64,000 nucleotides of DNA from the NCBI RefSeq assembly GCF_033344935.1, contig NZ_JAWPMM010000001.1:2094001-2158000 (forward strand). The letters are read 5' to 3'. Numbering within the stretch: position 1 is the first letter of the stretch; every line of letters begins with the position of its first letter. The notes under the pieces are model-generated. The model was not told the DNA's origin. It was given only the letters and a program-made list of their open reading frames with translations, and made no database searches. Position numbers and translations under genes: made by a program. This DNA is from Reichenbachiella sp. Its GTDB lineage: Bacteria > Bacteroidota > Bacteroidia > Cytophagales > Cyclobacteriaceae. Positions 38,720 through 48,139 of the stretch are shown here, piece by piece.

Positions 38720-39310
38720 TTATTGTCCAAGAGGTCTCGTGACAATAATCCCAGGGCTTGATGGGGTTTGACCAACAACTTGTTTTGATAATCCAATTCT
38801 TAGCCTTTGATTATCAGTTAGCGGTTGTTTATCATTATTTCTATGGGCAATGCTAATATTGGTGTGTGGTATTATTCCTGTATATGTCCAAACATTCGGA
38901 TTATTTGGCTGAGGCTGTTGAAATAATGCCGGATTTAACCCATTACTTTGTATTCTTAATAATCTATCTGCAGTACCTGAAACCGCATTGGTACTGTTAC
39001 TTGATAACCAAACAACACCTCCAGACCCCTGTAATCCATCAGTTTTAATTCTTTCAAGACCCTCATGATGTAAAGCATGAAATAAAAATCGTGGAACAAC
39101 AGTTTGTTGTGGAGCTACTTTAGGAGCTAGTTGAATGATATGTTTTGGTTTACCATTCGCCAATTCCTGAAGCTTTCTTTGTGCAATAACTTCAGGCCGA
39201 TTATCTTCAATCTGAAAAGTAGGCTTATTACTGTTCTGTTTTTTTTGAGAAATCTCAGTCGCAACCGATTGACTTTTGTTTTCTTGTGTTTTGTCAATGA
39301 AACTGTTCAT
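38720..39310 (-). CDS. Putative toxin with eCIS-type N-terminal leader; ART-like C-terminus
   Basis: 196 residues. Residues about 31-52 (TFQIEDNRPEVIAQRKLQELAN) match the leader of the DUF4157 protein encoded at 41087 (FQFVDKRPETHQLKKIQELAN), a segment typical of Bacteroidota contractile-injection cargo. The DUF4157 domain itself is missing. The C-terminal domain starts RFLFHALHHEGLERIKTDGLQ, then VVWLSSNS, resembling the opening of KptA/ADP-ribosyltransferase folds (His near strand 1, helix, 'GL', hydrophobic 'xWLS'). An ADP-ribosylating effector is an inference; no catalytic Glu is assigned. Last gene of the minus-strand group. Confidence 0.6.
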   Translation of the reverse strand: MNSFIDKTQENKSQSVATEISQKKQNSNKPTFQIEDNRPEVIAQRKLQELANGKPKHIIQLAPKVAPQQTVVPRFLFHALHHEGLERIKTDGLQGSGGVVWLSSNSTNAVSGTADRLLRIQSNGLNPALFQQPQPNNPNVWTYTGIIPHTNISIAHRNNDKQPLTDNQRLRIGLSKQVVGQTPSSPGIIVTRPLGQ

Positions 39311-41086: not shown

Positions 41087-42784
41087 CTATCCAGTTATTT
41101 CTTTTCCAGCAATGGCGGGAATAGGGTAATGAGTAATTAACTGCCAGCCTGTAGCGGGGGGGAGAGCCGTAACATCCATTATTCCAGGTCTTCTAACAGT
41201 TAATGTTGCCTGAGGTTGGGCAGCAGCTTGTGCAGGAAGTTCACCTCCTCTGGTATGCCACAGAGGATCAAGTGGTTTTCCTGCTGCTTTTGCTGCAGCC
41301 TTAGCAGCCGCGAGAGCTGCTTTTGCATTTGCAGTTAATTCAAAGGCTCTTCCAAATGGAGCTTTTTGAGGATTCTTAATTGCATATCCTCTCTGCGTTG
41401 ATTTTACCAAATTATTTACGGCAGTTGGTATTCCTAAAGGAGCGGCATTCATTGCTGCAAAGTTCAACTCATTGTAAAGTTTGATAGGAATTCTAGTTCC
41501 TCCTCCAGCAGCAGTAGCCAAATGATTATTATTCGTTTTTTCAGCTTTCAAATTTTTATATGTTGTGTTAACTACCTTTTTTGCTGCATTAAAACCAGGT
41601 GTTCCTCCAGTAGGAATTAGAGCATTCCAGCTAGCTGTATGAGCTGCAATCAAAGGTGTAAAGGCAGCATCAGTTGCTAATCGGGCATTATTTAATTCCG
41701 TTGTAGCATCAGTCATTGAATCGTTCATTTGCACGTCATTATCGAATCGTGAGCTGGTATCAGATGTTGCATTGTCATCTGCTCGATCTTGTTGTCGAAT
41801 TAAACGGTCAATTAACGCTAGATCTGATAAGTCAGCTCCATGCCTAACTTGTGGATGACCTCCTGTTTGAGCATCGCGTGATTGTGCAATTTGAGCACGT
41901 TCTTCGGCAATCATGCGCTCTAATGTGCCCAAGTGGGCCATTACCTTCATTACTACACTTCCGGGTTCAATTTGGTTAACAGGGTGGTTTCTTCGAAAGT
42001 TATTTATTTCACCTTCTACGATATTTAGTTTTACTGTTCTTTCATCTAGGTTAGCATCTGTTCGAATACTGGCGTAGGCCTCTAAACTTTCTTTTAACTG
42101 TTTGGCAGGGTTTTTAATATACCCACTTGGTGCGCTCCATTCTTTATTTACCCTCAATGAACTTGGAGTTCTTTGGACAACTGAATTTGAATTATTCAAT
42201 GTATTTGAGTTTTGGTGCCAATCAACTTTTCTTTGAACAACACCGTTTGCAACTATTTTTTCTTTAACTGGATTAATAAAATTCATCTGTATTGCCTTCG
42301 CCCCCATCACATCCGCTTCTTTCTCCAATCCGACATCATCATTTACATTTACTTTCCCTTTCATTTGCAGGGTAGGTTTAACCCGCCCTTGCTTCTGCTG
42401 CACCACATGCCATGCTTCATGAGGTAAATGTTTTTCTTGTCCTGAGGCTAAATGAATCTCCGTTCCTTGAGCATAAGCATGAGCATTGAGTTGAGCAGGC
42501 TTAGCAGAATTGTAATTGACTTTTACATCATTCATAGAGTAACCCGACAGACTTTCAATACCAGATTTGAGATTATCAGGCAGGCCTGTGTTGTTTCTCT
42601 TTTTTTGGATAGGGTAGGTGGGAGATGGATTATTGTTAGCTAGTTCTTGAATTTTTTTCAATTGGTGCGTTTCAGGACGCTTGTCCACAAATTGAAATGT
42701 CCCCCTTGCTATTTTCTTCGATTTGGTGACAGACTCAGCAATTGTTTTTTTGCCCTCTTGATTTTTTATAGCATGTGTTTTCAC
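41087..42784 (-). CDS. DUF4157 (eCIS core domain) protein with variable C-terminus
   Basis: 565 residues from a GTG. The leader FQFVDKRPETHQLKKIQELAN (about 30-50) is followed by the DUF4157 domain at about 64-135 with the metallopeptidase-like HEAWH (122-126), and LEKEADVMGAKA just after. DUF4157 is a marker of proteins associated with extracellular contractile injection systems. Residues about 200-565 are unrelated: a helical region, then an Ala-rich stretch (LAAAKAAAKAAG) and a segment ending LWHTRGGELPAQ. No toxin motif is recognised there. No sheath, tube or baseplate gene is in the window. First gene of a three-gene set in the same direction. Confidence 0.8.
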   Translation of the reverse strand: MKTHAIKNQEGKKTIAESVTKSKKIARGTFQFVDKRPETHQLKKIQELANNNPSPTYPIQKKRNNTGLPDNLKSGIESLSGYSMNDVKVNYNSAKPAQLNAHAYAQGTEIHLASGQEKHLPHEAWHVVQQKQGRVKPTLQMKGKVNVNDDVGLEKEADVMGAKAIQMNFINPVKEKIVANGVVQRKVDWHQNSNTLNNSNSVVQRTPSSLRVNKEWSAPSGYIKNPAKQLKESLEAYASIRTDANLDERTVKLNIVEGEINNFRRNHPVNQIEPGSVVMKVMAHLGTLERMIAEERAQIAQSRDAQTGGHPQVRHGADLSDLALIDRLIRQQDRADDNATSDTSSRFDNDVQMNDSMTDATTELNNARLATDAAFTPLIAAHTASWNALIPTGGTPGFNAAKKVVNTTYKNLKAEKTNNNHLATAAGGGTRIPIKLYNELNFAAMNAAPLGIPTAVNNLVKSTQRGYAIKNPQKAPFGRAFELTANAKAALAAAKAAAKAAGKPLDPLWHTRGGELPAQAAAQPQATLTVRRPGIMDVTALPPATGWQLITHYPIPAIAGKEITG

Positions 42785-42849
42785 CTATACTTATACCAAA
42801 AAGATAAAAAGGTTACCCACCTCATTCATTCATAGAAAATGTTAGGGTT

Positions 42850-43281
42850 TTAGTCGTATTGGTAATCTGCTAGTTTGAATTTGGTTTCTCCAATTATACC
42901 GTACATCTTTTTTGTTAGTCCGCTCCGATAGTGGGAGTATTCGTATCCGTATTCTGTGATTTCAGTTGTTGCTTTCTGAATATCAACTTCTCGCTTATAA
43001 ATAACTTGATTCACTGAGTTAAACACCAATGAAATATTATATGAATATGTATCAATGTTCCCTGCATTAGGTCGATAATAAAATTCTCTTTTTGAGTAGT
43101 TGAGAGTATCACCTTTAATGTCGACTAAGTTAAAAACTATTGAATCTTTACGGTTTGAATATGTCTGTTTTTGTCTCTTTATCGTCTCGTTAGAGTTATA
43201 CTCATATGCAGTGAAGGTCGAATCAATTCTTGAAGGGTTATTAATGTCTAAGGTTTGAACGCAAAGTATTTCATCGTTCAT
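42850..43281 (-). CDS. Hypothetical; probable distal part of an interrupted secreted protein
   Basis: 143 residues, no signal peptide and no recognised family. The sequence has short beta-strand-like segments rich in Tyr, Asn and Ser (YEYNSNETIKRQKQTY, VFNSVNQVIYKREVDIQK), typical of exported Bacteroidota proteins. The ATG immediately follows, in the same frame, the TAA of the upstream 78-codon frame that does carry a signal peptide. The simplest reading is one gene split by a nonsense codon; two tandem genes are possible. Not expected to be exported by itself. Confidence 0.5.
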   Translation of the reverse strand: MNDEILCVQTLDINNPSRIDSTFTAYEYNSNETIKRQKQTYSNRKDSIVFNLVDIKGDTLNYSKREFYYRPNAGNIDTYSYNISLVFNSVNQVIYKREVDIQKATTEITEYGYEYSHYRSGLTKKMYGIIGETKFKLADYQYD

Positions 43282-43518
43282 TTAATTGTATCGATATACT
43301 TTTTTAGCGAGCAATTCCTTTCTTCGATGGTATTCTTTTGAAATCGTTCGTCCTAGTTCATTGAGTTCCTCCAATGTCCAGTAGCCTCCGCCACCAGAAC
43401 CACTAAAACTTCTTGTAGTAATCGAACTAATCCCTTTCATGGCCTCTTCTTTTTTTAAGAGTTGAGATTGAGCCATTAATGTGTTCAGAAGTAGAAGGAG
43501 GACTGTGAAGGTTCTCAT
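43282..43518 (-). CDS. Small secreted protein; probable proximal part of an interrupted gene
   Basis: 78 residues from the ATG at 43518: signal peptide MRTFTVLLLLLNTLMAQSQ, then LLKKEEAMKGISSITTRSFSG and a Gly-rich turn. The frame is open further upstream to 43575, but that part overlaps the attC-like element, so the later ATG is chosen; it starts 7 bp from the element's end. The TAA at 43284-43282 is followed directly by an in-frame ATG and 143 more codons (see 42850-43281). Confidence 0.5.
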   Translation of the reverse strand: MRTFTVLLLLLNTLMAQSQLLKKEEAMKGISSITTRSFSGSGGGGYWTLEELNELGRTISKEYHRRKELLAKKVYRYN

Positions 43519-43524
43519 AATTCC

Positions 43525-43757
43525 TGCTAACGTACAGCTATCGGGCGTATGTCCGCAGCTAGTGAAAAGCAGCAATGTAGTGAAATCTGCCGAAGCTCAC
43601 AACGGTTCCAAATGGCACTGCGTTCCGAAAATCAAAAATCTTGCGAGCAAAAGATGGTAGAAAGCACTGCCGATTCTCAGCGGCAGATTCACGGTCGAAT
43701 TGCACTGCAACCAGCCAGAAAGCACTAAGACATATGCCCGATCAGCGTCTGTTATCA
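43525..43757. repeat. attC-like inverted element (233 bp)
   Basis: On the minus strand it opens with TGATAAC (43757-43751) and closes with GTTAGCA (43531-43525), which pair at 6 of 7 positions. Inside, ATCGGGC/GCCCGAT and the following CATATGTC/GACATACG continue the stem, with one unpaired G on one arm, like the extrahelical bases of attC sites. Further in, GTGAAATCTGCCG (about 43580) pairs with CGGCAGATTCAC (43681-43692). It separates two same-strand genes, ends 7 bp before the next ATG and begins 3 bp after the previous stop, as cassette recombination sites do. Longer than most attC sites. Confidence 0.55.
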
Positions 43758-43760
43758 GCT

Positions 43761-44246
43761 TTATTCCGGTTCTGGTTTGTCAGTTAAGACCCATGGAATT
43801 TTGCACTCAAATTCGATTTGCACCAGTTCTTTCGTTTCCGAAAAAGCTGTTAAGGCGTTCCCATACCGAAAGCCAATGCTGAAGTTCTCAGATATAGGAG
43901 TTAGTTCAAGGGTATATCCGTTCCCGTCATGTCCAGTTGGGACTTCACAGTTCGGTCCTTCGAAGTTTCCCTTGAAATGAAACCAACCACCGTAATAATG
44001 TTGTTCGGGTGCAGTTCGTGCGTAATGACTTACTTCTGTTTCCTTCATCCAATTGATACCGAGTTTGTTAAAAAGTTCCTTGATTTCAGTTGGGTAGATG
44101 TTCGTTCGTTGAGCTGCAAAGTTCAGGCAGTTGTCACACCCACAAGACTCAACTCCTGGTGTTTCAATCCGTTCGTAAGTTTCCGAAATTGTTTGTTTGT
44201 CGACTGAAAAGTTCCAGTTCTTGAAGTTCAGGTTAACTCTGCTCAT
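43761..44246 (-). CDS. Hypothetical cassette-like protein, 161 aa
   Basis: Not recognised. No signal peptide. ESCGCDNCLNFAAQR (about 33-47) has a CxCxxC cluster that might bind metal, followed by YPTEIKELFNKLGINW, EVSHYARTAPEQHYYGGWFHFKG, and a beta-rich second half ending in acidic PEPE. Promoterless-looking, it fits tightly between the recombinase-proximal site (44261-44292) and the attC-like element that begins 3 bp after its stop, the layout expected of an integron gene cassette. Confidence 0.6.
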   Translation of the reverse strand: MSRVNLNFKNWNFSVDKQTISETYERIETPGVESCGCDNCLNFAAQRTNIYPTEIKELFNKLGINWMKETEVSHYARTAPEQHYYGGWFHFKGNFEGPNCEVPTGHDGNGYTLELTPISENFSIGFRYGNALTAFSETKELVQIEFECKIPWVLTDKPEPE

Positions 44247-44260
44247 GGAAGTGGATTGCT

Positions 44261-44292
44261 GATAACAAATGGCTAACGTAATGTGTGTTATC
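44261..44292. other. Recombination-site-like inverted cores after the recombinase gene
   Basis: On the minus strand, GGATAAC (44293-44287), nine bases, then GTTAGCC (44277-44271), a pair of inverted 7-mers matching at 6 of 7 positions with the same mismatch as in the attC-like element; a further TGTTATC lies at 44267-44261. It starts next to the recombinase stop codon. Candidate attI-equivalent joining the recombinase gene to the first cassette. Confidence 0.45.
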
Positions 44293-44294
44293 CA

Positions 44295-45446
44295 CTATAT
44301 GTTTTTTCCCAAATCTAATGGATTAATAATTTGTTTGAAACTCGTATTGGCAACGTGAGTATAGATTTCTGTGGTTTGCGTAGAATTATGACCCAGCAGC
44401 GTCTGGATATATCGAATATCGGTTCCATTCTCTAGAAAATGTGTAGCAAAAGAATGTCGGAGCATATGAGGGGTGACTCGCTTCCTGATGCCTGCCTTTT
44501 TTGCCGCTTTGCTCACTATTTTACCAACGCTCGTTCCGCTGTAGGGCTCTTTTTTCGCACTTTCAAATAAGAATTTAGTTGGTCGATATTCCTTAAAATA
44601 TTGACGCAATTCATTCAGCATACTTTCATTGAGCAATGTATATCGATCTTTGCCTCGTTTTCCGTCTCGCACTTTGATCATCATTCTGTTGCTTTCAATG
44701 TCCGTTGGAATGAGGTTGAGCAATTCTCCACGGCGCAATCCTGCAGAATAAAGTAAACTTATGATGCATCGATGTTTGATATTCTGTGTAACGCCAATCA
44801 TCTTCATCACTTCTTTATGACTAAGCACCTCAGGTAACTTCTCCTTTTTTTGTGGTCGATCCACTTCATAAAATCGATTGGGCATTCCCATCACTACTTC
44901 GTAATAAAACTTGATAGCATTGATGGATTGATTGATATAGGCATCAGAACGCTTCTCGCCAATTAGAAATTTTAAATAGGCATTAATCTGTATTTCTGAA
45001 AGCTCATTGATTGGCTCATTTTCATAGTAATTGATAAATTTTTCAAATAGCGTAATGTAAGCCCGTGCAGTACTTGTAGCGTATTTTTTTAATTCCAGTT
45101 TCTGATAAAACTCCTCCGGACAATATCTCCAGCCTTCTTTGGGTAGTCGCTGACGGTAGCTGTCTACAGATAGCTCCTCATGTCCGTTTCTGACGGGTCT
45201 ATTTGGAAAGAAATGCGAGCAGTTAATCCAGCATACTCCTTTGAATTTTGAAAAAATAAGATTCAAGTTTTCAGAATGGTTGGGTAGATACACCATGCCA
45301 AATTTTTCACTCCATCTAACTTCAGGCAAATCTTTCACAAGTGCCTGAATTACCTTGTCAGGATAAAATTTAAGACCAATCATCTTTTTGTTGTTGATAA
45401 AAAGATGTTTTAACGTGATATGTTTGGGTGTTTGAGTCGAATTCAT
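44295..45446 (-). CDS. Tyrosine recombinase (XerC/D- or integron-integrase-like)
   Basis: 383 residues from the ATG at 45446 (a GTG adds four codons). It has an extra N-terminal part (about 1-100), a SAM-like core-binding domain (about 115-190), and a catalytic domain with Arg238 (SAGLRRGELLNL), HMLRHSFATH (His327, Arg330), His353 (LLGHNST) and nucleophile Tyr362 (TEIYTHV). The end QIINPLDL resembles integron integrases, but the IntI-specific insertion before the second catalytic half is absent. It is transcribed toward the cassette-like genes, unlike classical integrons. Complete and probably active. Confidence 0.88.
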   Translation of the reverse strand: MNSTQTPKHITLKHLFINNKKMIGLKFYPDKVIQALVKDLPEVRWSEKFGMVYLPNHSENLNLIFSKFKGVCWINCSHFFPNRPVRNGHEELSVDSYRQRLPKEGWRYCPEEFYQKLELKKYATSTARAYITLFEKFINYYENEPINELSEIQINAYLKFLIGEKRSDAYINQSINAIKFYYEVVMGMPNRFYEVDRPQKKEKLPEVLSHKEVMKMIGVTQNIKHRCIISLLYSAGLRRGELLNLIPTDIESNRMMIKVRDGKRGKDRYTLLNESMLNELRQYFKEYRPTKFLFESAKKEPYSGTSVGKIVSKAAKKAGIRKRVTPHMLRHSFATHFLENGTDIRYIQTLLGHNSTQTTEIYTHVANTSFKQIINPLDLGKNI

Positions 45447-45547: not shown

Positions 45548-45961
45548 ATGGAAACTTCAAAATGCCTGCATTGCAATAAATCGATAACAGGTCGACAAGA
45601 CAAGAGATTTTGTGATGCACAGTGCCGCTCTAATTTTCACAATCAAAACAAAAGAAAACATGAACGAGTGATGGGCGCCATCAACCGTCAGATTCGAAAA
45701 AACCGAACCATATTAAAAACACTTTGTCCTGAGGGCAAGGCTACTGTTCGAAAAGAAAGATTGTTGGACATGGGTTTTTCATTTCAATATTTCTCTTCTC
45801 AGTATATAGAAGGAAAGTTGCGCTATTATTTTTCTTACGAATATGGATTTGCTCCCATTATTCAGCACTCTCGTACAGAAGGTGCTCCTGTTCGCAAAGT
45901 GATTATTATACAATATCAAGAAAGTATGAAAGGGGCATTTGACCCTTGGCAGGGTCTCTGA
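45548..45961 (+). CDS. Zinc-ribbon protein of unknown function
   Basis: 137 residues. CLHCNKSITGRQDKRFCDAQCRSNFHNQ (about 6-33) is a four-Cys zinc-binding element with the RQDKRFCxAxCR signature seen in small Bacteroidota proteins. A basic helix (RKHERVMGAINRQIRKNRTILKTL) and a small beta-rich tail follow. DNA or RNA binding is plausible. Divergent from the recombinase across a strong palindrome; convergent with the serine hydrolase 17 bp away. Confidence 0.75.
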   Translation: METSKCLHCNKSITGRQDKRFCDAQCRSNFHNQNKRKHERVMGAINRQIRKNRTILKTLCPEGKATVRKERLLDMGFSFQYFSSQYIEGKLRYYFSYEYGFAPIIQHSRTEGAPVRKVIIIQYQESMKGAFDPWQGL

Positions 45962-45977
45962 CTATATTTAAATACTA

Positions 45978-47003
45978 TTATCGCTTGCCCAATATTTTTC
46001 TCAACCGATTATTAATTATCTCTGAGAGGTTCCAGAGTAGTAAGTCTTTATCAGTAGTGTTGTAGAATTGAATGACTACTGTGTCTATATCTTTATAGTA
46101 ATTGGCAAAACTTTGATAGCCTGGTACCCAGCCAGAATGCTCATATTTGTAAATAGAAGTATAGATTTCTTGCTCATCGTTTTCGAACACTGATCCGTCA
46201 TTCAATGCTCTTAAGAAGAGGCCGACATCTTCAGCTGTTGCTACCATTCCAAGATCGTCAGGCTTTAAATCGTACGGATGTCCAACATGGTAACCACTCA
46301 TTACATCGTCCATATTTGTTTCTTTCAGTGATTCATAGGTATTGGTCAGATTGAGAGGCTCCAGGATTTCATTTTGCACAAATCGGAAGGTGTCGTGCCC
46401 TAGCTCATTACTCATGATCCTTCCAAGCAGTAGGTAGTTGGTGTTGCAATATTCATAGTCTTCTCCTGGATCAAAGTTTGCCGGTAGGTCCAGAATCAAG
46501 GAAAGATTTTCCTCATAAGTTCGAGAAGGAGCTGCCCAGAAGTTTGGTGCATTTGTATAATTGACAATCCCGCTTCGATGCTGAATCATGTTTCGCAATG
46601 TGATCTTCTCAGCATTTTCTATTCTGTCTGCCAATTCTGGCAGGTAATCAGCGAGTGTTTTGTCCAATGACAATCGCCCGGCACTTACCAATTTGGTTAC
46701 GGCTACGGCATCATATAGCTTGCTGATACTCGCAATTTTGAACAGCGCGTGAGGATCTGCGGGTATGCGTTTTTCTCTATCATGCCATCCCGCTGCATAA
46801 TAGGAAGGGGCTTCGCCTGCCTGATCTACATAGACGATCATGCCCTCATAGCCATATCCGATGGCTTCTTCCATTTGCGCTGGCAGCGTATCGGGCAGCG
46901 GCCGTATCCACGCCCAGACCAAAGTCCAGGGCACGAAGAACAAAGAGATTACGGTTCCTGTGAATAATAGAAATCTGGTAATGTTTCTGGTTTTATTGGT
47001 CAT
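45978..47003 (-). CDS. Membrane-anchored serine hydrolase (beta-lactamase family)
   Basis: 341 residues: an N-terminal helix at about 10-32 and a class C beta-lactamase/DD-peptidase-like domain. SISK (S92-K95) is the nucleophile motif, EYCNTNYLLLG carries the YxN, and EHSGWVPGY stands where KTG would be. Family members act on D-amino-acid peptides or esters. It is paralogous to the next gene (same IPADP.ALFKIASISKLY core), and they probably arose by tandem duplication. The anchor differs: a membrane helix here, a lipid in the paralog. Confidence 0.85.
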   Translation of the reverse strand: MTNKTRNITRFLLFTGTVISLFFVPWTLVWAWIRPLPDTLPAQMEEAIGYGYEGMIVYVDQAGEAPSYYAAGWHDREKRIPADPHALFKIASISKLYDAVAVTKLVSAGRLSLDKTLADYLPELADRIENAEKITLRNMIQHRSGIVNYTNAPNFWAAPSRTYEENLSLILDLPANFDPGEDYEYCNTNYLLLGRIMSNELGHDTFRFVQNEILEPLNLTNTYESLKETNMDDVMSGYHVGHPYDLKPDDLGMVATAEDVGLFLRALNDGSVFENDEQEIYTSIYKYEHSGWVPGYQSFANYYKDIDTVVIQFYNTTDKDLLLWNLSEIINNRLRKILGKR

Positions 47004-47101: not shown

Positions 47102-48139
47102 TCAAATTTCGGTCTTGTTTTTAAGGATTCGAATTGTGCGCTTATAGACACTTTTGAGTCTGAGCCAATATATTTCTTTGCCACTAGTACTTACGAACTG
47201 CACTACTACTGCATCCATTTCGCTATGGTAACGTGCGATGCTCGTATAGCCTGGTAACCAACCTGTATGTTCGTAAGGATATACCGATGTATAAATGGCC
47301 TGCTCATCAGGTGAGAATAAGGTGCCATCAATGAGCGCCCTCAAAAAGATACTCACATCCTCCGCAGTGGCAATCATGGATCCTCCAGGCAAAGGAAATT
47401 CCAAATCTCTTAAGTCAGATCCCCCACTTTTTAGGTAGCCACTCATGACTTTTTGCATATCTACCTCGCTTGGAACATTGTAGGTGTTTTTTAAACCAAG
47501 TGGCTCTAATATTTCTTCACGAATGTACTTATGATGGGAGTAACCTAATGTCCGATCCAAGATTTCACCGATTAATAAATAGTTGCTGTTAGAGTAGCCA
47601 TATTTCTTGTTAGGTTTAAAAACCGCCGGTTTATCATAAATTCTTGCGGCAAATGAGAGGTGATCGACAAATGATTCTCCTGCAACCTCTGGCTCAAAAC
47701 TATAATCTAGCAACCCACTTCTATGTTGAATCATCATTTTGAGTGTGATTTCATTAGCGTATTCAATCTTGCCTTCAACTTCAGGGATCAGTTCGCCAAG
47801 TGTCTGATCCAGTGACAGTTTTTCCTCAGATATCAACAAGATAGTAGCTGCAGCTATATATAGCTTACTGATACTAGCGATTTTGAACAATGCATTTGGA
47901 TCGGCGGGAATTTGGTCTTCTCTGTTTTTCCATCCTGCTGCATACAATTGAATTTCACCCGGTCGATTCACACAAACGATGACACCATCCATACCATGAT
48001 CTACCGCATCTTTTAATTGTTCCTCAACTGTGTTTGGCAGAGGCCGTAGTCCCAAAGCACAACCCGACAAAAGAACCATGACATAAGCTAATGCTATCGA
48101 TGGAATGGTTGGAAGAGATATTGATATGCTCTTTTTCAT
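47102..48139 (-). CDS. Serine hydrolase lipoprotein (beta-lactamase family)
   Basis: 345 residues with a lipoprotein signal ending LLSGC (Cys27). S89-I-S-K92 is the nucleophile motif, YSNSNYLLIG the YxN, and EHTGWLPGY the third motif. Clearly paralogous to the protein encoded at 45978. About 100 bp separate them on the same strand, so they may be one transcript. Substrate unknown. Confidence 0.85.
   Translation of the reverse strand: MKKSISISLPTIPSIALAYVMVLLSGCALGLRPLPNTVEEQLKDAVDHGMDGVIVCVNRPGEIQLYAAGWKNREDQIPADPNALFKIASISKLYIAAATILLISEEKLSLDQTLGELIPEVEGKIEYANEITLKMMIQHRSGLLDYSFEPEVAGESFVDHLSFAARIYDKPAVFKPNKKYGYSNSNYLLIGEILDRTLGYSHHKYIREEILEPLGLKNTYNVPSEVDMQKVMSGYLKSGGSDLRDLEFPLPGGSMIATAEDVSIFLRALIDGTLFSPDEQAIYTSVYPYEHTGWLPGYTSIARYHSEMDAVVVQFVSTSGKEIYWLRLKSVYKRTIRILKNKTEI

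What the first reader, a model, noticed from the sequence alone, without database searches (positions are those of the whole stretch)
43525..45446. Integron-like platform in a Bacteroidota chromosome with same-direction recombinase
A complete tyrosine recombinase is followed, on the same strand, by a short site of two inverted 7-mers (GGATAAC, GTTAGCC), a tightly packed gene, and a 233-bp element whose ends (TGATAAC, GTTAGCA) pair with the same single mismatch and whose stem has a bulged base, as attC sites do. GTTAGC closes both sites, so GTTAGC would be the exchange point. The recombinase lacks the IntI insertion and points toward the cassettes, unlike classical integrons. If real, this is a distinct cassette-capture system.
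Basis: partly seen in the sequence, partly recalled or inferred. Interest (0 to 1): 0.8.

Follow-up and report, generated by a model that had tools for sequence, protein, structure and literature searches.

The report
Hidden integron type in Bacteroidia
A bacterial chromosome carries a gene-capture platform that looks and behaves on paper like an integron, but its recombinase lacks the protein part thought to make integrons possible, and related platforms recur across the Bacteroidia genomes sampled here.

Summary
The minus-strand recombinase (44295-45446) is followed by an attI-like site, a one-gene cassette (43531-44265) and a 233-bp attC-like site (43525-43757). Exchange is placed at G^TTATCA (44260-44266), not GTTAGC. 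Similar sites form one-direction arrays elsewhere in this chromosome and in relatives. In 22 of 30 consecutive site pairs the end of one site is the exact reverse complement of the start of the next (81 of 2550 over all site pairs), as integron cassettes require. Three cassettes occur twice, 99.9-100% identical from end to end. The recombinases lack the roughly 42-residue IntI insertion (I2) and form a clade beside IntI. Stem irregularities are G.T wobbles on the bottom strand in 98 cases against 5 on the top, near the two places where IntI sites carry extrahelical bases. IntI was found in 1 of 247 Bacteroidia genomes, relatives of this recombinase in 125 of 247. This reads as an I2-less integron variant. 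Recombination itself is inferred. My searches of the held papers did not turn up a description.

The parts
44295..45446 (-). I2-less integron-like tyrosine recombinase, 383 aa from ATG at 45446 (searches used 44295-45440, without the first two residues)
   Evidence: Pfam Phage_integrase 133 bits and Phage_int_SAM_4; NCBIfam XerA_Arch 225 bits over cutoff 220, IntI model TIGR02249 196 bits under cutoff 265; insertion absent; tree
44271..44293 (-). attI-like palindrome, degenerate copy of one found whole at G000:1908.8 kb (L063)
   Evidence: in the window alone not better than shuffles (27 of 30)
44260..44266 (-). attI exchange heptamer G^TTATCA
   Evidence: exact complement of the first attC's R'' TGATAAC; same relation in relatives
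43531..44265 (-). gene cassette 1, 735 bp, from TTATCA to the G of the next GTT
43761..44246 (-). cassette gene, 161 aa, no Pfam or NCBIfam family; homologues in 4 of 294 other family genomes, none in the 7 congeners searched
43525..43757 (-). attC-like site, 233 bp: R'' TGATAAC at 43751-43757, R' GTTAGCA at 43525-43531, an extra base on the R'' arm
42850..43518 (-). two small ORFs (43282-43518 and 42850-43281), probable second cassette
   Evidence: ORFs; they follow the GTTAGCA junction; inference
42810..42847 (-). probable decayed, truncated attC of the second cassette (CCCTAAC...CTATGAATGAATG, like the 162-bp attC class)
   Evidence: read by eye against sites; inference
45548..45961 (+). 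divergent zinc-ribbon protein gene, 137 aa, a frequent neighbour of such recombinases; function unknown, perhaps regulator or accessory factor
   Evidence: found in 44 of 71 recombinase loci, opposite strand in 43 of 43 read; alignment; family also elsewhere; AlphaFold2 model pLDDT 88 without PDB match at E<=0.001

Best explanation
This is the recombinase end of an integron-like cassette system. The recombinase joins incoming circular cassettes at G^TTATCA next to its own 3' end and can cut cassettes out again at G^TT of their attC sites. Each cassette carries one gene (sometimes several) and an attC that folds, most probably as the bottom strand, into a hairpin: R boxes, an unpaired spacer, an L stem and a variable tip. 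Shown by sequence: site architecture, the complementarity rule, arrays, end-to-end cassette duplications, different cassettes in congeners, absence of the IntI insertion (I2), strand asymmetry of stem irregularities. Inferred: that this recombinase is the enzyme, that it acts on the folded bottom strand, that polarity is read from G.T wobbles or an extra base in place of the extrahelical bases that I2 binds in IntI, and that cassettes are co-transcribed from upstream of the recombinase because they lie in its direction.
For: Successive-site rule: 22 of 30 consecutive pairs exact over 4 nt, against 81 of 2550 over all ordered site pairs (the consecutive ones included) and 3 of 51 within one site (23 of 32 if two pairs with irregular ends are put back; by my count of its rows 16 of 21 where both sites are covariance-model hits). 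The cluster at 1.411-1.416 Mb, whose three sites came from the model, obeys it in 2 of 2. Junction beside the recombinase complementary to an attC downstream in 30 of 60 distinct recombinase loci with at least 700 nt downstream held, the window among them. Chained cassettes: 9 behind the second own recombinase; 9, 7 and 12 in congeners G002, G004 and G003. Duplicated cassettes: 848 bp 100%, 756 bp 99.9%, 707 bp 100%, identity running only 1-3 nt beyond the cassette ends, the G and TT of the junction included. Among 47 cassettes of four congeneric genomes no blastn match over 250 bp links two species. A homologue of the window's cassette gene in another genus lies between two attC sites that obey the rule (L230). 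Stems: 98 bottom-strand against 5 top-strand wobbles in 68 sites, p 2e-23; 67 against 4 in 48 representatives; bottom-strand arms more stable in 53 of 68. C before GTT in 65 of 68 (the walk slightly favours this), an attC trait in PMC2727003 (passages). Tree: this clade (94/95) beside IntI; insertion absent.
Against: No recombination was observed. Half of the recombinase loci examined (30 of 60) showed no junction plus attC in the DNA held, often only 1.5 kb, so many relatives may do something else or have lost their cassettes; a few of the 30 hits may be chance, for example L051 and L180, where 10 of 20 random starts also hit. The window's own attI palindrome is degenerate and its array is short, so this copy may be decaying. 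Some cassettes hold several ORFs (up to five in the first of the own array). PMC7790495 (passages) presents I2 as what allows single-strand attC recombination. For the window's own attC, full-length folding favours the top strand (-37.4 against -33.0 kcal/mol) and the arms alone tie. Scanner, covariance model and walk all look for stems, so stem covariation is partly circular. Eight sites have an extra base on the other arm only.
Confidence: 0.85

Rival explanations
1. The cassettes are real, but the recombinase treats attC as ordinary double-stranded DNA, like Xer at dif; hairpins are a by-product.
For: The catalytic core is Xer-like with no I2; attI palindromes resemble double-stranded binding sites.
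Against: R'' and R' bound elements of 68-281 bp with variable middles; the rule that R' of one site complements R'' of the next makes sense if R'' and R' pair in the cassette; stem imperfections favour one strand 98 to 5.
Confidence: 0.1
2. Ordinary integron cassettes moved by a classical IntI, the local recombinase being irrelevant.
For: The attC-like sites share R boxes, spacer and the C before GTT with classical attC (PMC2727003 passages); true IntI exists in other classes of the phylum.
Against: No IntI match in this genome and 1 of 247 genomes in the class; the junction lies behind the 3' end of the I2-less gene in 30 of 60 distinct loci; nine IntI sites of the same phylum (seven from one genus, kept from 12 candidates) show extra bases on the R'' arm in 9 of 9, whereas 58 of 68 sites here show a wobble at the second mark.
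Confidence: 0.03
3. Dispersed hairpin repeats (MITE- or REP-like) with chance resemblance to attC.
For: The elements recur across the genome with 69-86% identity over parts (six best matches elsewhere).
Against: Repeats do not predict complementarity between neighbours, one orientation per array, or duplicated units bounded at G^TT.
Confidence: 0.01

Closest known systems
Chromosomal integron with IntI (TIGR02249), e.g. IntI4 of PDB 2a3v bound to attC
   Same: Recombinase, attI with G^TT exchange, attC with R/L boxes, unpaired spacer, variable tip, cassettes in arrays, cassette duplication and replacement; nearest solved fold by Foldseek
   Different: No I2 insertion (60-66 residues between catalytic lysine region and HxLRH motif against 103 in two IntI); second polarity mark is a G.T wobble in 58 of 68 sites; frequent divergent zinc-ribbon neighbour; N-terminal extension of about 100 residues in the window's closest relatives (absent from the second own recombinase); palindromic attI
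Inverted integrons (recombinase in the direction of the cassettes)
   Same: Same-direction recombinase
   Different: Mentioned in PMC8352920 as a sub-clade of IntI (passages); the proteins here lie outside the IntI sampled
Archaeal XerA / XerC-like recombinases (NF040815; PDB 4a8e, 5hxy)
   Same: Best curated family by score (over its cutoff for the window; under it for two of five relatives scanned) and similar core without I2
   Different: The PDB entries are named as Xer recombinases; here the gene heads cassette arrays. Archaeal XerA is not in the tree
'Integron-like' subgroup of simple tyrosine recombinases in PMC8138268
   Same: That paper says the insertion is not fully conserved in its subgroup (passages), so such proteins may have been grouped there
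   Different: The passages seen do not tie I2-less members to attC arrays and call the insertion essential for integron function; its data sets were not seen

Membership tests
Integron (as a system) | Site-specific tyrosine recombinase gene next to a recombination site (attI) | tested here: met
Integron (as a system) | Array of cassettes, gene plus attC, sites in one orientation | tested here: met
   one cassette holds a large ORF on the other strand (L059 6548-8761)
Integron (as a system) | Exchange at G^TT, with R' of each site complementary to R'' of the next | tested here: met
Integron (as a system) | attC hairpin with unpaired spacer, extrahelical bases on the R''-L'' arm, variable tip | tested here: inconclusive
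   hairpin, spacer and tip present; extra base only on the R'' arm in 32 of 68, only on the other arm in 8; second mark a wobble in 58 of 68
Integron (as a system) | Cassette mobility | tested here: met
   duplications and species-specific arrays, comparative only
Integron (as a system) | Recombination of the folded single strand by the recombinase | not testable with these tools
   strand asymmetry only
IntI integron integrase (TIGR02249) | IntI-specific additional domain (I2) | tested here: not met
IntI integron integrase (TIGR02249) | Score over the curated cutoff of 265 bits | tested here: not met
   196 bits window, 209 bits second own recombinase, 188-205 bits four named relatives
IntI integron integrase (TIGR02249) | Falls inside the IntI clade | tested here: not met
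   sister clade in a 61-row tree, support 94/95, just under the starred level
Chromosomal XerC/XerD | Groups with the XerC/D-like proteins of the same and related genomes | tested here: not met

The most novel reading that the evidence does not exclude
A second kind of integron, spread through the class Bacteroidia where IntI is nearly absent, that recombines folded bottom-strand attC sites without the I2 helix. Its attC sites mark polarity with an extra base or a G.T wobble at the first mark and a G.T wobble at the second, in place of two extrahelical bases. Being a sister clade to IntI, it may preserve the state before I2 was gained.
Probability: 0.5. Interest if true: 0.93.

Novelty: new variant of a known kind. 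Interest (0 to 1): 0.86.

Why it matters
Integrons have been recognised through IntI and its additional domain (PMC2426708 and PMC9668308, passages), and PMC9024848 (passages) names one complete integron in Bacteroidetes proper, Salinibacter ruber M1. A parallel type in Bacteroidia with an I2-less recombinase could escape such searches. It would open a pool of mobile cassettes (one here encodes a type IIG restriction enzyme) and give a natural test of the claim that I2 made single-strand recombination possible. It also offers a testable code for strand choice: wobble pairs instead of extrahelical bases.

Tried and rejected
GTTAGC as a common exchange sequence: rejected, because junctions vary and match the next site instead. 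attC as a known Rfam family: no match in window, L058 and L059. The zinc-ribbon gene as an integron-specific marker: rejected, since the family is in 158 of 247 Bacteroidia genomes; this genome has three, two beside the recombinases. Function of the zinc-ribbon from its fold: no PDB match at E<=0.001. Conserved chromosomal location: of 17 window genes, only the recombinase, the zinc-ribbon gene and weak (30-31%) hits of one response-regulator-like gene were found in the 20-kb regions of five congeners. Extra base as a universal mark: not supported, 32 of 68. Rows dropped: two pairs with irregular ends (one match, one miss); rows XerC_L085 and XerC_L096, wrong reading frame; 3 of the 12 IntI-locus candidates (L220, L227, L228), set aside by eye because their ends or arms did not look like attC, which favours the extra-base result (two of the three had no extra base, one had an extra base and a wobble). 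The random-start control (0-10 of 20 starts per locus) often overlaps the real site and is not a clean control. The chain walk uses the complementarity rule and is not counted as evidence for it.

Full report
WHAT IS THERE. The window is G000:C1:2094001-2158000 of a 4.88-Mb single-contig chromosome, unnamed. Among named organisms the closest recombinase met was that of Marinoscillum sp. MHG1-6 (63%). Reading the minus strand: recombinase (ATG 45446, stop 44295), a 23-bp imperfect palindrome (44293-44271), four bases, GTTATCA (44266-44260), a gene (44246-43761), a 233-bp hairpin element (43757-43525), two small ORFs and a probable attC remnant near 42847-42810. A zinc-ribbon gene lies divergently at 45548-45961.

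MORE COPIES. Blastn with the element found further copies in the same chromosome. Scanning for paired arms showed further sites that differ in sequence but share the design NNNNAAC - spacer - stem - variable tip - stem - spacer - C - GTTNNNN. A covariance model from 20 sites found 13 sites in this genome at E<=10 (12 at 0.01) and 4 to 13 in each of the 8 genomes of the genus searched, this one included. The largest own array follows a second recombinase (G000:1024212-1025129, 45% identical to the first); all its sites point one way.

THE TEST THAT DECIDES. In integrons, exchange between G and TT leaves each site's last bases belonging to the next cassette, so R' of site n must complement R'' of site n+1 (established knowledge of integrons). 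That relation was not used by the scanner or the model that found the sites tested, although I had seen it in some of the 16 stem-scan sites before I listed them. It holds exactly over four bases in 22 of 30 consecutive pairs (23 of 32 with two irregular pairs), against 81 of 2550 over all ordered pairs of sites, the consecutive ones included, and 3 of 51 within a site. Where both sites are covariance-model hits it is 16 of 21, my count from the same rows. Several misses have room for an undetected site. A third region, 1.411-1.416 Mb, obeys it in 2 of 2. The junction behind the recombinase predicts an attC downstream in 34 of 66 loci, or 30 of 60 distinct loci when a C before GTT is also required; a few of these may be chance.

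CASSETTES MOVE, BY COMPARISON. Walking the rule gives 9 linked cassettes from the own second attI, and 9, 12 and 7 beside the recombinases of congeners G002, G003 and G004. Three cassettes occur twice in their arrays, 99.9-100% identical over 848, 756 and 707 bp, and the identity runs only 1-3 nt beyond the cassette ends. A fourth pair, within G004, is 78% alike over 385 bp. No cassette pair from different species matched over more than 250 bp among 47 cassettes of four genomes; shorter matches, such as attC pieces, were not listed. The window's cassette gene has homologues in 4 of 294 other genomes of the family and none in the 7 congeners searched. In one of them (L230) it lies between two attC sites obeying the rule; in two more (L231, L232) an attC-like end precedes it by eye; in the fourth (L233) nothing was seen. 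Cargo of the own array includes a type IIG restriction-modification protein in a 4.5-kb cassette, an OsmC-like protein, a TrmO-like domain, a trypsin-like protease and a PIN-like protein (9 and 8 proteins scanned). The first cassette of that array holds five ORFs and one cassette holds a large ORF on the other strand.

THE RECOMBINASE. It scores best with the XerA_Arch model and below cutoff with the IntI model. Five relatives scanned score 188-209 bits with the IntI model, under its cutoff of 265; three Xer-like proteins score 131-151. Between the catalytic lysine region and the HxLRH motif the window protein has 61 residues; the second own recombinase and 29 relatives aligned have 60-66, while IntI1 and a Bacteroidia IntI have 103. 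IntI4 in the PDB shows the same gap. In a 61-row tree the I2-less set (30 rows, support 94/95, not starred) and IntI (17 rows, 13 of them from one family, 100/100) are sisters against 14 Xer rows. Three I2-less rows are on long branches and archaeal XerA was not included, so the sister relation is provisional; gain of I2 on the IntI branch or loss on the other cannot be told apart. AlphaFold2 (pLDDT 81, pTM 0.49) gives IntI4 bound to attC as top Foldseek match (E 3e-17, TM-scores 0.49 and 0.57), closely followed by XerA (7e-17).

THE SITES. In 68 distinct sites found by the walk, A follows AAC in 67 and C precedes GTT in 65; the walk gives a small bonus for that C. The C is reported for classical attC in PMC2727003 (passages). 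Stem irregularities are one-sided: 98 would be G.T wobbles in the bottom strand and A.C-type mismatches in the top, 5 the reverse; with one representative per 70% cluster, 67 against 4 in 48. My scanner had slightly favoured the opposite kind. They gather 10-11 bases (25 of 98) and 15-16 bases (55 of 98) after AAC. At the first place a site has either an extra base or a wobble (33 extra base only, 20 wobble only, both in 3, neither in 12; Fisher p 2e-6), and a wobble is present at the second place in 58 of 68. Nine attC-like sites beside true IntI genes, kept by eye from 12 candidates and seven of them from one genus, show extra bases on the R'' arm in 9 of 9 and 3 wobbles in all; by eye their extra bases fall about 6-10 and 13-16 bases after AAC. 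Bottom-strand arms fold better in 53 of 68, full sites in 42 of 68; for the window's own site the arms tie and the whole site favours the top strand. The suggestion that wobbles replace the bases that I2 docks is mine; that I2 docks extrahelical bases is from PMC7790495 (passages).

THE ATTI. An inverted repeat of 14-37 bp ends within 2-7 bases of the junction in 20 of 30 platforms, and in 17 of 30 the best repeat beats nearly all shuffles (0-1 of 30 as good); its sequence varies between species. The window's copy is degenerate; an intact one, with a cassette, lies at 1908.8 kb where one search reported no recombinase (L063).

THE NEIGHBOUR. A zinc-ribbon gene was found in 44 of 71 recombinase loci, many of which hold only 1.5 kb of flank. 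It lies on the opposite strand, upstream of the recombinase, in 43 of 43 that could be read (by my count 35 distinct; two of the 43 gave only a four-residue fragment). The family is also common elsewhere (158 of 247 Bacteroidia genomes).

DISTRIBUTION. A profile of the recombinase matches 125 of 247 Bacteroidia genomes at E<=1e-70; only some of these were tested for sites. IntI over cutoff occurs in 1 of 247 Bacteroidia genomes and in 105 of 395 genomes sampled across the phylum, 104 of them listed as outside the class. Relatives at lower identity were seen in plasmid and phage collections and in 11 viral contigs, not followed.

LITERATURE. Ten searches of the held library listed no paper whose title or abstract start describes this system; one search showed 15 of 354 papers and 15 of 27, the others their full lists. 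Passages only were read in PMC9668308, PMC2426708, PMC8618304, PMC9024848, PMC8138268, PMC2727003, PMC8352920, PMC7790495 and PMC3414803. Integrons in Bacteroidota are in print (PMC8618304, PMC9024848), in line with the IntI found here in other classes. PMC8138268 says the insertion is not fully conserved in its integron-like subgroup, so I2-less relatives may have been noticed as proteins. Subscription papers and preprints are not held, so prior description cannot be excluded.

VERDICT. It works like an integron on the sequence evidence I could test, but the recombinase is not a member of the IntI family. I file it as a new variant of a known kind.

Noticed in passing
window 38720-39310 and 41087-42784, minus: Two ORFs with related N-terminal segments (QLKKIQELAN / QRKLQELANG); the longer has an HEAWH stretch recalling DUF4157 proteins (recalled, not searched). 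They lie just beyond the array end.
   Followed up: no
window 45978-47003 and 47102-48139, minus: Two adjacent paralogous ORFs that look like beta-lactamase-fold serine hydrolases by eye.
   Followed up: no
L063 (G000:1898000-1916000), near 1908.8 kb: An intact attI palindrome followed by a cassette and attC, with no recombinase reported there: a solo platform.
   Followed up: partly
L058 8014-11724: A 4.5-kb cassette carrying a type IIG restriction-modification protein next to a helix-turn-helix gene, so a defence gene travels in this array.
   Followed up: partly
L119 (G000:1411443-1416139): A cluster of three attC sites far from any recombinase listed, like the integrase-free attC clusters of classical integrons.
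   Followed up: yes
G001, G006, G007: Three congeners show only partial or interrupted matches to the recombinase among the matches listed yet keep attC sites: the platform seems to decay.
   Followed up: partly
L234-L237: Relatives of the recombinase (41-47% identity) in viral contigs of 39-132 kb.
   Followed up: no
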